Shown here one piece after another: positions 8,085 through 14,275 of a stretch of DNA of 24,765 nt. How positions within the stretch are numbered: position 1 is the first letter of the stretch; the number at the start of each line of letters is the position of its first letter. Made by a program: the position numbers and the translations under genes. Below the pieces are notes generated by a model. That model was given only the letters and a program-made list of their open reading frames with translations. It was not told the DNA's origin and did no database searches. This DNA is from a virus. Where the stretch lies: positions 1-24,765 of IMG/VR virus record IMGVR_UViG_3300025280_002275, one strand, 5' to 3'.

Positions 8085-8477
8085 TTATCTACCGCATGAC
8101 CTGCATATTATAGGGGCTTCCGGGTCACAGCCATCAGGCCCTATCGGACAGACTCGTGGCACCATAAGCGTGTCGAGGATGTCCCACAGTGCGAGGCGTT
8201 CACCAAATATGCCAACCTGCTTATCGCTTCCTACAGGCCAGCCGTCCTTATCCCAAAGGGACTGGTTCTGTGATATCAATAGCTGCTGTCCCTTCCTCAG
8301 ACGTGTCCCCAGTTGGGCGTAGAAGGCTTCTATGCCAGGCTTGCAGTCTCTGAGCTTGCTGATGAGCGGATGTCCCTTATAGGGGCTCGTCACGCGCATC
8401 TGTCCCTCACCAGGATGCACCTTGATACCTGTATAGTATGCGTCCAGTAGTAAAGCTATTAAAACTGTGTCGTCCAT
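8085..8477 (-). CDS. TubC-docking-like small protein with C-terminal zinc motif
   Basis: 130 residues. The first ~53 (LIALLLDAYYTGIKV, QMRVTSPYKGHPLISKLRD, KPGIEAFY) have the order of a TubC N-terminal docking-like module: helix, G-I-x-V strand, L-R-V-T-x-P strand, then two helices. Such modules are often found next to phage helicase/primase genes, where they probably mediate protein contacts; this match is by eye. The end holds C110, C117, C125 and C128 (CRSCG), a likely zinc site. AGAGGAG precedes the start. Its first 19 bases overlap the end of the helicase gene, so it may be a partner of that ATPase. Confidence 0.6.
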   Translation of the reverse strand: MDDTVLIALLLDAYYTGIKVHPGEGQMRVTSPYKGHPLISKLRDCKPGIEAFYAQLGTRLRKGQQLLISQNQSLWDKDGWPVGSDKQVGIFGERLALWDILDTLMVPRVCPIGPDGCDPEAPIICRSCGR

Positions 8478-9793
8478 AAGTCGTCTTTCTCCTCTTTGTC
8501 AGGCGCAACAGTAGAATTGGCGTGATCATATATCATGCCGTCTTTCTCCACGAGCTTGCCTGCCTTACAGAAGCGGCTGATGGCAGTTTTTACTGCTGCA
8601 CGTAGGCCATCTTCCTTAGCTTCCTTGAATTCAGCTACCAGTTTCGGTAACGCATCTTTACTTGTAGGCCCCTCAGTCTCAATGATGTGCAGTACCACCT
8701 TTGCCACGCTCATTTCACGGGCAAAGTCAGTGTCAATCGGGTCTTTTGCAACGATATTTACAGACTGAGTGGTACCGGTAGTGGGATCAGGCGTGAAGTT
8801 GAGGCGGTATGCTCTCGGCACTTCCTTGCCAACGCTGTTGCTCTTTCTATGGAACAACCCAACATCGATTTGCCCTCGCGTCACGGCAGATCGTTTCACT
8901 TCCCAGAGATTTCTCGCTGCTGCGAGTGTGTACTGGGACCCGAACAGATGACCGTCCTTGTTGGTGTGAGTTATAGTCAGCGAGGTCGAGCCCAGTACTC
9001 TCAGGGCAGCAAAGTAGCTGATCACCATCTCCTCATCCACCAGTTTGCCGCCTGTGGCAAGGCCCATCGAGTCCACCATTATGACGATAGGCGTATCATC
9101 GCCGCCCCATCTACGTTCGATGAGATCCAGTATGTAATCAGTCTCTACGACCAGGGGCTGTGTACAATATCTGTACACAACATTAGAGGGCGCGGTTATC
9201 TCCATGCCCCTATGTAGCCATTTCAAGCGATGTAAAATTTCTATCTCGTCTGTTTCGTAGTCCAGGTAGAGGACATTAGCCCGCCGTGTGACCACCTTGA
9301 GTTGAGAATTCACATGGCCTGTGTCCATTAGCGCAGCCCATTGCAGGGCCATCATGCTCTTGGCTGTGCCGGGATCTCCATATATCACATTGGATTTGCT
9401 CTCTAGTATGTACGGCTCGACAAGCCAGGTGTCTTGCTCGATCTCCTTATCCCAGAGGTCGGAGACTGCCACTTCGGGTTGCCCCTGCCGGTGGGCATCG
9501 AGCGTACGTCCGGCTAATTCCTCGGCCCAGTCGCGCCAGTTGATCCCATAGTCGGTGGCTTTGCGTCTGTCCTCAAGCAGTCTACAGAAGTCCCGCATCG
9601 AACTCATTGATGTCAACGTGGGATGGGCTCTCACGAGCTGCACGTCATCGAGCCATACACATATCTGTGCTTTCAGGCTATCCTGTCCTTTTGACACAAG
9701 CCGTGATATCTCGGCCTTGACATCGTGCCCCGCCCAGTTATCGATCCACTGGTATCCCGATCCTACTTTCTGCCACGTTGTTACGTGGTCCAT
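8459..9793 (-). CDS. RepA-like AAA/RecA-fold ATPase, probable replicative helicase
   Basis: 444 residues. Walker A is YGDPGTAKSMMA (G139-S146), preceded by the WLVEPYILESKSNVI lead-in typical of AAA_25/RepA-like hexameric ATPases; Walker B is PIVIMVDSMG (D241), and ITHTNKDGHLFGSQ (274-287) followed by AARNLWEVKR matches the sensor region. The C-terminal ~65 residues (SVAKVVLHIIETEGPTSKDAL to KLVEKDGMIY) look like a winged helix for DNA binding. Expected role: origin or replication-fork helicase of the phage. AGAGGAG lies nine bases before the ATG. It overlaps both neighbours slightly. No primase or polymerase is in the window, so it may depend on host enzymes. Confidence 0.82.
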   Translation of the reverse strand: MDHVTTWQKVGSGYQWIDNWAGHDVKAEISRLVSKGQDSLKAQICVWLDDVQLVRAHPTLTSMSSMRDFCRLLEDRRKATDYGINWRDWAEELAGRTLDAHRQGQPEVAVSDLWDKEIEQDTWLVEPYILESKSNVIYGDPGTAKSMMALQWAALMDTGHVNSQLKVVTRRANVLYLDYETDEIEILHRLKWLHRGMEITAPSNVVYRYCTQPLVVETDYILDLIERRWGGDDTPIVIMVDSMGLATGGKLVDEEMVISYFAALRVLGSTSLTITHTNKDGHLFGSQYTLAAARNLWEVKRSAVTRGQIDVGLFHRKSNSVGKEVPRAYRLNFTPDPTTGTTQSVNIVAKDPIDTDFAREMSVAKVVLHIIETEGPTSKDALPKLVAEFKEAKEDGLRAAVKTAISRFCKAGKLVEKDGMIYDHANSTVAPDKEEKDDLWTTQF

Positions 9794-12265: not shown

Positions 12266-12506
12266 GTTTCCCTCTCTCTCTCTTTACGGTCTGAATGTGT
12301 ATACAATTTTCGACTCGCTCCGATCCATCTTTCTCGCAGCTCCATCCCCAGTCATACTTATGGACGGCTACGCCCTCAACAGGCTTTTGGGATCTGGTGT
12401 GTACCAGATACGTGCCTTTAATCGGACAACTCATCGTCATCAGTTGATCATGCCACGCATCTGTTATCGCATCAATTAGGTTTGGTGATGTCGTTGCTAT
12501 TCTCAC
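12240..12506 (-). CDS. SWIM-like zinc-binding small protein (GTG start)
   Basis: 88 residues from GTG at 12506, with GGAGAGGGGGAAG ending six bases upstream. The segment GTYLVHTRSQ, then GVAVHKYDWGWSCEKDGSE and ENCIHIQTVKRE (C57, C68, H70) has the order of a SWIM zinc finger: strand, strand ending in a Cys pair, about ten residues, then C-x-H; here the first Cys pair is reduced to one cysteine, so metal binding is uncertain. SWIM domains bind DNA or proteins. The product overlaps the next gene by 26 bases. Confidence 0.55.
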   Translation of the reverse strand: MRIATTSPNLIDAITDAWHDQLMTMSCPIKGTYLVHTRSQKPVEGVAVHKYDWGWSCEKDGSERVENCIHIQTVKRERGKHEYKNRIA

Positions 12507-12645
12507 GGACTACTTCCCCCTCTCCATTGCAAGTTTCACAAATCGCGTGTGGTATCGGTAATAATGTCGAGGCATCTCCAGATTCGTACTCAGCTAGGAC
12601 AAAACCTCGTCCATTACAGTCATTACAGCCATCGACTGTCATCAT
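12472..12645 (-). CDS. Small DnaJ-type zinc-finger protein (two CxxCxGxG)
   Basis: 57 residues. CNDCNGRG (C7, C10) and CETCNGEG (C36, C39) are two copies of the CxxCxGxG motif of the DnaJ cysteine-rich zinc domain, joined by a short loop with PIPHAI. Such lone zinc hairpins are common in phages; function is unknown. Two adjacent ATGs at 12645 and 12642; AAAGGAG is two bases before the first and five before the second, so the second may be used. It starts 19 bases after the edge of the 35-bp repeat array. Confidence 0.7.
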   Translation of the reverse strand: MMTVDGCNDCNGRGFVLAEYESGDASTLLPIPHAICETCNGEGEVVRENSNDITKPN

Positions 12646-12663
12646 GTCTCCTTTCTATGCTTT

Positions 12664-12983
12664 TGTTACACTCAACTTTCGTGCTACATCTGCTTAGATG
12701 GTTCACTCATGTATTCTGCTACATCCCTCAAAGTGGTTCACTCATTCTTGCTGCTACATCCCTGTATCTGGTTCACTCCAACATAATGCTACATCTCTTT
12801 GTTTGGTTCACTCGCATCTCTTGCTACATCTTGATCAGTGGTTCACTCAATCCTTGTGCTACATCTTGTTGACTGGTTCACTACCGCCCTGTGCTACATC
12901 TTGTTGACTGGTTCACTCCTTCTCTTTGCTACATCAAAACGCTTGGTTCACTCTGTTTCTTTGCTACATCCCGAAGGTTGGTT
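12664..12983. repeat. Bipartite 35-bp tandem array (two alternating boxes, fixed 8-nt variable gaps)
   Basis: Nine exact copies of TGCTACATC start at 12682, 12717, 12752, 12787, 12822, 12857, 12892, 12927 and 12962. Eight copies of TGGTTCACTC (one ending in CTA) start at 12699, 12734, 12769, 12804, 12839, 12874, 12909 and 12944. Every unit is 9 + 8 + 10 + 8 = 35 bases. Degenerate boxes in register close the array at 12664 (TGTTACACTC) and 12979 (TGGTTACC, overlapping the stop codon of the IS110-like gene). The gaps are unrelated except one repeated TTGTTGAC. The array fills the whole intergenic space and is not coding: 35 is not a multiple of three. Possible protein-binding iterons, origin, partition site or repeated RNA. 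Confidence 0.95.
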
Positions 12984-13863
12984 ACCAATTTGGGGGCGGA
13001 ATAAACGCTTGGTGTCCACCTATGGCAATCACCCAGGGCTTGGGTGGAGCCGTGTTGTTCTTTATCTCATATCCGACATACCAGTAATGACTTAGGAATA
13101 GCTTTACCGCCCACCGCAAAGCCCGCATACGAATTTGGCCGTCAGGAAGCCTACCCTGCTCATAAGCCTTCTTTGCACTTGTCTCTTTCTTATAGGAACC
13201 ACTGGATAGAGCCTTCTTCGCAGTCTCGGCGTACTTCCCTGCATCATTGTTCGCTATCTCGTACAGCTTTCTATCAGCGAGCATGTGACCGTAGAAATCC
13301 TTATCACTGTTCTGCACCTTCTCAAAGGAAGATGCAATCTTGAAGCACAGTGTCTTCAGTTGACTGTTCCACGGACGCTTCTCGTTCTTGTCCCATGTTA
13401 CCGTAGGGTCAAGTCCTGCAAATCGCCATATACCCGCAGGGGTTTTTGCTATGTTCAAATCTATATGTGCAAGTAACCCTGCTGTAATAACTGGACCGAT
13501 TCCATGTATTGACCTAGCCCACTGACCCAGTGCCTGGCTTGAACCGTATTCATCCAGAACTTTATAGATCTGGTTCTCAGCAAACTTGAAGTTCTTGAAG
13601 TTGACATCCAGCAAATTGTGAGGTTCCTCGGCCTTCTTAGTTTCGGCAATCTGATTTCCAGCTCGGATACGGCCCTTCTGTGCCATGTAATAGTTATCGA
13701 CTAAGAACCTCGCTTCTTTAGCTGTTGCAGATCTAGCCAGCTTTCGCAGGTCATCATCAATAGCGGTCATAGATTCGGGGGCGCATCCGGGGCAAATGAG
13801 TCCAGACCCACAGAGAAAACATTCATCCTGTAATTCAATCTCAACCTTGGCAACTGTCATCAT
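12982..13863 (-). CDS. Stand-alone IS110-like helix-hairpin-helix protein with N-terminal zinc knuckle
   Basis: 293 residues. CFLCGSGLICPGC (C15, C18, C24, C27) is a four-cysteine zinc site. Residues 105-180 resemble the C-terminal (transposase_20) half of IS110-family recombinases: SIHGIGPVITAGLLAHID helix-hairpin-helix, IWRFAGLDPTV, then KRPWNSQLKTLCFKIASSF. The remainder is helical and ends in PPKPWVIAIGG. The N-terminal RuvC-like DEDD catalytic domain of IS110 enzymes is absent, and no insertion-sequence ends are seen, so it looks domesticated. Two ATGs (13863, 13860) follow AAAGGAG. The 35-bp array starts at its stop codon. A DNA- or RNA-binding role is inferred. Confidence 0.8.
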   Translation of the reverse strand: MMTVAKVEIELQDECFLCGSGLICPGCAPESMTAIDDDLRKLARSATAKEARFLVDNYYMAQKGRIRAGNQIAETKKAEEPHNLLDVNFKNFKFAENQIYKVLDEYGSSQALGQWARSIHGIGPVITAGLLAHIDLNIAKTPAGIWRFAGLDPTVTWDKNEKRPWNSQLKTLCFKIASSFEKVQNSDKDFYGHMLADRKLYEIANNDAGKYAETAKKALSSGSYKKETSAKKAYEQGRLPDGQIRMRALRWAVKLFLSHYWYVGYEIKNNTAPPKPWVIAIGGHQAFIPPPNW

Positions 13864-13898
13864 GTCTCCTTTCCTATCCTAATGTCGTGCTAGACGTT

Positions 13899-13904
13899 AG
13901 TATA
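13899..13904 (-). promoter_or_regulatory. Candidate -10 box for the IS110-like gene
   Basis: On the minus strand GTGTTATACTAACG contains TATACT, 36 bases before the start codon region of the IS110-like gene. The -35 region at 17 bases (GTCGAA) is poor, so an activator or weak promoter would be needed. It lies between the 36-bp palindrome and the gene, a sensible position for a regulated promoter. Confidence 0.35.
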
Positions 13905-13975
13905 ACACAAACCTTGTGCATTTCGACCACGATTCTACTAGATTCCCTCACAAGTCTCTTAAAGAACATGACATG

Positions 13976-14011
13976 TAGTACATACCTGTTCTTAAGAACA
14001 GGTATGTACTA
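13976..14011. promoter_or_regulatory. 36-bp perfect palindrome
   Basis: TAGTACATACCTGTTCTT (13976-13993) is exactly mirrored on the other strand by 13994-14011, with no loop. It starts 13 bases beyond the stop of the leftward gene at 14024 and about 110 bases before the IS110-like gene. There is no T-run, so it is better explained as an operator for a dimeric or tetrameric protein (or cruciform/replication site) than as a simple terminator, although it could also stop transcription. Confidence 0.7.
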
Positions 14012-14023
14012 GTACAGTACAGT

Positions 14024-14275
14024 TCATGTCTGTTTTTCTACGACATGGTAATTCGGATAACGTCCAACAATTTTGTACTCATCGGATTGCTCCTCGACAA
14101 ATGCAACGTGGATCGCGTTCCGAATGTCTCGTTTCGACTCGCCATAGGGATGCTCGTAAATGTGAAGTTCTTCACCATCGTGGACGGTGAAGAATTTCAG
14201 TGAGCGATAATCGCCACGTTTCAGCGTCCCAACATGCCACCATCCTAGTACCATCCTATTGTCGTAGCTACTCAT
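14024..14275 (-). CDS. Small hypothetical protein
   Basis: 83 residues, AAGGAG eight bases before the ATG; the start overlaps the upstream stop (ATGA). The sequence is beta-rich with WWHVGTLKRGDYRSLKFF, ELHIYEHPYGESKRDIRNAI and YKIVGRYPNYHVV, a compact soluble domain with many aromatic and charged residues. No family recognised. Last gene of the small-gene cluster before the 36-bp palindrome. Confidence 0.7.
   Translation of the reverse strand: MSSYDNRMVLGWWHVGTLKRGDYRSLKFFTVHDGEELHIYEHPYGESKRDIRNAIHVAFVEEQSDEYKIVGRYPNYHVVEKQT

What the first reader, a model, noticed from the sequence alone, without database searches (positions are those of the whole stretch)
12664..12983. Exact 35-bp bipartite repeat array with fixed 8-nt variable gaps
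Seventeen conserved boxes of two kinds alternate without a single spacing error, and the gaps between them vary freely. Ordinary tandem repeats would keep the gaps; CRISPR spacers would be longer. Selection is acting on the boxes and on their phase (17 and 18 bases start to start). This is a pattern of a multi-site protein array, iteron origin, partition site or a repeated RNA in which each box is read by one protein or pairs with a partner. It fills the entire space between two genes and is bounded by degenerate boxes on both sides.
Basis: seen in the sequence. Interest (0 to 1): 0.87.

Follow-up and report, generated by a model that had tools for sequence, protein, structure and literature searches.

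The report
TIGR guide-RNA array beside phage tasA
The striped repeat is a TIGR array, a bank of paired 8-letter guides that a neighbouring phage protein (TasA, a relative of IS110 transposases) most likely uses to find DNA; it is a well-formed new member of a system first described in 2025.

Summary
At 12664-12988 there are nine identical 9-nt boxes and eight (nearly) identical 10-nt boxes, strictly alternating with variable 8-nt gaps (period 35). It is not an iteron or partition site. It is a TIGR array (Tandem Interspaced Guide RNA) read on the minus strand as edge GAGTGAACCA - spacer A - loop GATGTAGCA - spacer B. It directly follows, and overlaps by the stop codon, a 293-aa Tas protein (12982-13863, minus). 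The protein's profile finds solved TasR (E 2e-28) and TasH (1e-16), and its predicted fold matches both (Z 18-19) better than IS110 transposases (Z 13). It has no RuvC or HNH domain, so it is a TasA. Relatives down to 23% identity, including Salicola phage CGphi29, the published TasH system, carry the same kind of array; 87 of 96 fetched loci show a 35/36-nt period next to the gene. In a 70%-identical sister the boxes are kept (85-87%) while spacers have nearly fallen to chance. Two features set this clade apart: a CxxC-x5-CxxC knuckle at the TasA N-terminus (0 of 89 other loci checked) and a 9-nt loop giving 35-nt instead of the usual 36-nt units. No natural target was found. Novelty: new member of a known kind.

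The parts
12664..12988 (-). TIGR dual-repeat array: 9 complete spacer A - loop - spacer B units, 35-nt period, transcribed with the tas gene (inferred)
   Evidence: same anatomy as published TIGR arrays (PMC12045711)
12979..12988 (-). 5' truncated first edge repeat (TTGGTAACCA); contains the tas stop codon TAA (12982-12984)
12962..12970 (-). first of nine identical loop repeats GATGTAGCA (others every 35 nt down to 12682-12690)
12944..12953 (-). first full edge repeat GAGTGAACCA (others every 35 nt down to 12699-12708; one reads TAGTGAACCA)
12664..12673 (-). last, degenerate edge repeat GAGTGTAACA
12982..13863 (-). tasA: 293-aa Nop-domain Tas protein without nuclease domain (PHROG 4285 'transposase', Pfam Transposase_20 only)
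12985..13731 (-). Nop/Tas domain of TasA (residues 45-293) that aligns with TasR and TasH structures
13783..13821 (-). N-terminal CxxC-x5-CxxC zinc-knuckle-like motif (residues 15-27), found only in this clade
12472..12645 (-). 57-aa ORF with two CxxCxGxG motifs that starts just after the array (AGAAAGGAG ribosome-binding site); its first ~20 nt nearly copy the tasA start region

Best explanation
This is a phage TIGR-TasA locus. Shown here: a Nop-domain protein related to solved TasR and TasH, without a nuclease, directly followed in the same direction by a dual-repeat array with fixed box phase and free 8-nt spacers, and the same pairing in dozens of relatives. Inferred from published TIGR systems: tasA and the array are co-transcribed on the minus strand; the pre-tigRNA is cut in the middle of each edge repeat (GAGTGAACCA) into about 35-nt tigRNAs; a TasA dimer holds the edge ends on one protomer and the loop repeat (GATGTAGCA) on the other; spacer A pairs with one DNA strand and spacer B with the other over a ~16-bp site. 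Having no nuclease, TasA most likely binds and bends target DNA and so blocks transcription or replication of competing mobile elements or the host (least certain step, perhaps 50%).
For: Sequence profile: TasR 9mty E 2e-28, TasH 21kl E 1e-16, ahead of IS621 E 0.003. Fold (mean pLDDT 79): TasH/TasR Z 17-19 over 190-227 residues, IS110 recombinases Z 13, unrelated rows 8.6 or less. Array anatomy matches the paper: two alternating 8-12-nt repeats, 8-9-nt spacers, first edge repeat truncated at its 5' end. Homologues at 23-26% identity, including Salicola phage CGphi29, the published SpTIGR-TasH locus, also carry a 36-nt array directly after the gene. 87 of 96 relatives have best lag 35 or 36 near the gene, against 0 of 10 distant IS110-like hits. 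In 66 parsed arrays 1826 of 1874 spacers are exactly 8 nt. Last bases of edge and loop covary between loci (A/A 32, G/G 10, mixed 1; Fisher p 6e-9, relatedness not corrected), the covariation the paper reports. Sister phage (protein 70%): boxes 85-87% identical, spacers 28-41% (chance 29%). The array RNA has no excess folding (z 0.75), as expected of tigRNAs. The period of 35 is not a multiple of 3, so it is not a coding repeat.
Against: No RNA data: transcription and processing are not shown. No terminator was found after the array; here the array runs into another small gene. Box C of the loop is GCA while the edge has CCA, so the box motif is not perfectly shared between edge and loop. The unit is 35 nt, not 36. 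No natural target was detected: no self-target within one mismatch, and no excess over control pairings in 0.88 Mb and 0.64 Mb of related phage DNA.
Confidence: 0.94

Rival explanations
1. An iteron-type origin or partition (parS-like) array: a DNA-binding protein reads the boxes in double-stranded DNA, and the gaps are unconstrained spacers.
For: Fixed phase with free gaps, next to replication genes such as the AAA_25 ATPase at 8459-9793.
Against: The array type travels with the tas gene across unrelated phages. The repeats carry the box motifs and truncated ends of TIGR arrays. The array is in the sense orientation of tas and overlaps its stop codon. No ParB or initiator was recognised by the family searches that were run.
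Confidence: 0.03
2. The noncoding end of an IS110-family transposon, with the array as a bridge-RNA-like feature.
For: Pfam Transposase_20 hit and PHROG 'transposase' label; IS110 and Tas share the Nop-like domain.
Against: The N-terminal catalytic (DEDD) domain of IS110 is missing (no Pfam hit, and only ~44 residues precede the shared domain). TasR and TasH score far better than IS621. IS110 bridge RNAs are single two-stem units, not arrays (PMC12045711). Ten distant IS110-like hits have no 35/36-nt array.
Confidence: 0.01
3. It is a TIGR array, but it acts inside the phage's own programme (regulating its own genes or assisting integration or recombination) rather than against other elements.
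For: TasA has no nuclease; the paper suggests roles in transcription block or as an aid to integrases.
Against: No site for any of the nine units with 1 mismatch or fewer in the 24.8-kb window, and no excess of self-sites in the family; the window is only part of the genome.
Confidence: 0.15

Closest known systems
TIGR-TasA (FpTIGR and other solo-Nop Tas loci; Faure et al. 2025, PMC12045711)
   Same: Nop-domain protein without nuclease; adjacent array of alternating edge and loop repeats with short paired spacers; found in tailed phages.
   Different: Period 35 with a 9-nt loop and 8-nt spacers (FpTIGR spacers total 18 nt); N-terminal CxxC-x5-CxxC knuckle; no terminator after the array; loop box C is GCA.
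SpTIGR-TasH of Salicola phage CGphi29 (PDB 21kl, 9w04 and others)
   Same: 8-nt spacers, array directly after the gene; its GCGAGCCA-type repeat resembles the sister phage's GAGCGAGCCA; homologous C-terminal ~240 residues.
   Different: TasH has an N-terminal HNH nuclease; period 36; protein only 23% identical.
TasR (PDB 9mty)
   Same: Best profile hit; same Nop fold (Z 18).
   Different: TasR has an N-terminal RuvC nuclease and 9-nt spacers.
IS110 / IS621 bridge-RNA recombinases
   Same: Shared Nop-like RNA-binding domain (Z 13).
   Different: No DEDD domain, no bridge RNA, not a transposon here.
VIPR (PMC13142463)
   Same: Phage-encoded guide with constant and variable positions alternating.
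   Different: VIPR repeats are GGY/NN with a RAMP-type protein; here boxes are 9-10 nt, gaps 8 nt, protein Nop-type.

Membership tests
TIGR-Tas | Array of two distinct alternating 8-12-nt repeats separated by short variable spacers of fixed length (9 nt; 8 in SpTIGR) | tested here: met
   9-nt and 10-nt boxes, all gaps 8 nt; paper definition
TIGR-Tas | Array next to a gene for a Nop-domain protein of the Tas family | tested here: met
   Profile hit to TasR and TasH; fold; array begins at the stop codon
[quoted passage not shown]
   TTGGTAACCA at the start and degenerate GAGTGTAACA at the end; the last one is degenerate rather than cleanly truncated
TIGR-Tas | Terminator after the array (typical in the paper, not a defining requirement) | tested here: inconclusive
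   The simple scan shows no minus-strand terminator in 12300-14100; a small ORF follows at 12645. The paper calls a terminator typical only, and one further downstream was not sought
[quoted passage not shown]
   Both repeats GA...CA in the window; across 43 loci last base A/A 32, G/G 10, mixed 1. First base of box C differs (CCA against GCA)
TIGR-Tas | Expression and processing into ~36-nt tigRNAs bound by Tas | not testable with these tools
   needs RNA sequencing
TIGR-Tas | DNA recognition by spacers A and B on opposite strands | not testable with these tools
   searches for natural targets gave no excess over controls
TasA subtype | No RuvC or HNH domain | tested here: met
   Pfam finds only Transposase_20; only ~44 residues lie before the shared domain, the first 15 with pLDDT under 50
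IS110 transposase | N-terminal DEDD (RuvC-like) catalytic domain | tested here: not met
   no hit; structure match starts at model residue 45 and IS621 residue 125
CRISPR array | One repeat of ~25-36 nt with spacers of similar size, cas genes | tested here: not met
   two repeats of 9 and 10 nt with 8-nt gaps
VIPR | Alternating GGY/NN motifs | tested here: not met
   boxes GATGTAGCA and GAGTGAACCA with 8-nt gaps (PMC13142463 abstract)
Iteron or parS array | Bound as double-stranded DNA by an initiator or ParB | not testable with these tools
   no initiator or ParB recognised among the proteins scanned

The most novel reading that the evidence does not exclude
This clade is a distinct TasA variant: an added N-terminal zinc knuckle and a one-nucleotide-shorter loop (35-nt guides) evolved together, and the knuckle gives nuclease-less TasA an extra activity, such as holding DNA or recruiting a partner (possibly linked to the small CxxCxGxG protein encoded just after the array).
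Probability: 0.2. Interest if true: 0.55.

Novelty: new member of a known kind. Interest (0 to 1): 0.45.

Why it matters
TIGR-Tas is a recently described RNA-guided DNA-targeting family whose natural role, targets and array growth are open questions; the function of nuclease-less TasA is the least clear. This locus adds a compact, intact phage TasA system and a clade with an unusual N-terminus and unit length. The survey made to test it shows phages with tas genes 97-98% identical that share only a minority of spacers, which makes array turnover in nature directly testable.

Tried and rejected
Target search. The published 8-nt 3' overhangs imply a target of spacer B followed by the reverse complement of spacer A, gap 0-2 (deduced from PMC12045711). 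I searched the window and sister, 0.88 Mb of fetched loci with three control pairings, the same split by edge- and loop-spanning pairs, full contigs of five sibling phages and 0.64 Mb of phage contigs. No pairing stood out after removing redundant relatives. One cell looked high (33 against ~13) but came partly from counting near-identical contigs several times. One guide of L035 matches its four siblings at 15 of 16 positions while L035's own site has a further change; control orientations give as many such hits, so I treat it as chance. RNA folding of the array and Rfam: nothing. No tRNAs. Plasmids hold no homologue. Deep-sea or other origin of the contigs was not tested.

Full report
What is there. 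The array is exactly as described: nine copies of TGCTACATC and eight of TGGTTCACTC alternate at 17/18-nt steps with 8-nt gaps that vary. The genes on both sides run on the minus strand, so the array is best read there: edge GAGTGAACCA, spacer A (8), loop GATGTAGCA (9), spacer B (8). The nine units (A/B) are ACCTTCGG/AAGAAACA, AGCGTTTT/AAGAGAAG, GTCAACAA/CAGGGCGG, GTCAACAA/CAAGGATT, CTGATCAA/AGAGATGC, AACAAAGA/TTATGTTG, GATACAGG/GCAAGAAT, CTTTGAGG/GAATACAT and TCTAAGCA/CGAAAGTT. Units three and four share spacer A. Calling GAGTGAACCA the edge rests on the ends of the array: it starts with a 5'-truncated copy (TTGGTAACCA) and ends with a degenerate one. In Salicola phage CGphi29 and Microcystis phage Mvi-JY20 the matching GCGAGCC-type repeat is the last one before a terminator-like hairpin and T run.

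Neighbour gene. The 293-aa protein (12982-13863, minus) is labelled 'transposase' in PHROGs and has a weak Transposase_20 hit. A six-sequence profile finds TasR 9mty (2e-28) and TasH 21kl (1e-16) before IS621 (0.003). The AlphaFold2 model (mean pLDDT 79, pTM 0.75) matches TasH and TasR with Foldseek E 2e-7 to 5e-6 and Z 17-19, IS110 recombinases with Z 13, and nothing else well. No nuclease domain is present, so it is TasA by the paper's definition (PMC12045711).

Relatives. Exact-pattern search found two near-identical contigs with an identical array (L006, L007) and a sister phage (L003-L005, protein 70% identical) with 11 units of the same period at the same place. Boxes are 85-87% identical between the two and spacers 28-41% depending on register; the best register (offset 1) keeps a weak trace of common descent (permutation p 0.005). 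Distant homologues in Salicola phage CGphi29 (the published SpTIGR-TasH locus) and Microcystis phage Mvi-JY20 have arrays in the same position and orientation. A wider search gave 330 IMG/VR relatives, of which the best 80 were kept, and 10 good ones in GTDB genomes. Of 96 loci, 87 have their strongest lag at 35 or 36 near the gene; of ten distant IS110-like hits, none. In 66 parsed arrays 1826 of 1874 spacers have 8 nt. The last base of the two repeats covaries, as the paper describes for box C/D.

What is unusual. The window and its sister have a CxxC-x5-CxxC motif before the Nop domain; none of the 89 other loci examined has it, and the paper's main text does not mention zinc. The loop is 9 nt, so the unit is 35 nt; L022 and L086 are other 35-nt arrays. 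The simple scan shows no terminator after the array, which leads into a 57-aa ORF with two CxxCxGxG motifs whose first ~20 nt nearly copy the tasA start region.

Mechanism. By analogy with TasA, TasR and TasH experiments, the transcript should be cut in the edge repeats and each ~35-nt RNA should guide a TasA dimer to a ~16-bp site, spacer A on one strand and spacer B on the other. Without a nuclease the likely outcome is bound and bent DNA and a block of transcription or replication. None of this was measured here. Searches for targets among this phage, its sister and related phages gave nothing above controls.

Verdict. The identification as TIGR-TasA is firm; the biological role is inferred. 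It is a new member of a known kind with two clade-specific features.

Noticed in passing
L033, L034, L035, L036, L039 (IMG/VR 3300044994, 3300045922, 3300044993, 3300044941, 3300044940): tas genes are 97-98% identical between the distinct phages (L036 and L039 are the same), but arrays of 25-93 spacers share only about 4-17 spacers in order, in scattered blocks: fast spacer turnover with a constant tas gene.
   Followed up: partly
L061 vs L064: Two otherwise identical arrays (63 and 65 spacers) differ by one inserted unit (CTCCAGCA/CGATCCAC) that adds no new spacer sequence, so arrays can grow by copying a unit.
   Followed up: partly
L025:5842-8157: This tas gene is interrupted in frame by a ~420-aa stretch that looks like an intein (starts CHPTT..., ends ...VADGIAVHN before C), splitting the Nop domain; a 37-spacer array follows.
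   Followed up: no
L026:5986-6822: tas gene broken into three reading frames, although a long array (48 spacers parsed) with well-kept boxes follows it.
   Followed up: no
window 13976-14011: Perfect 36-bp palindrome (TAGTACATACCTGTTCTT and its complement, no loop) between tasA and the upstream gene; possible operator or hairpin.
   Followed up: no
window 12472-12645 and 13842-13885: The start regions of the small ORF after the array and of tasA are nearly identical (GAAAGGAGACATGATGACAGT / GGAAAGGAGACATGATGACAGT), and both proteins begin MMTV with paired cysteines nearby.
   Followed up: no
L110 and L113: Tas genes with 36-nt arrays lie in genome contigs of Halomonas sp. NO4 and an Acidobacteriaceae strain, probably proviruses; the Halomonas locus resembles IMG/VR contig L093.
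   Followed up: no
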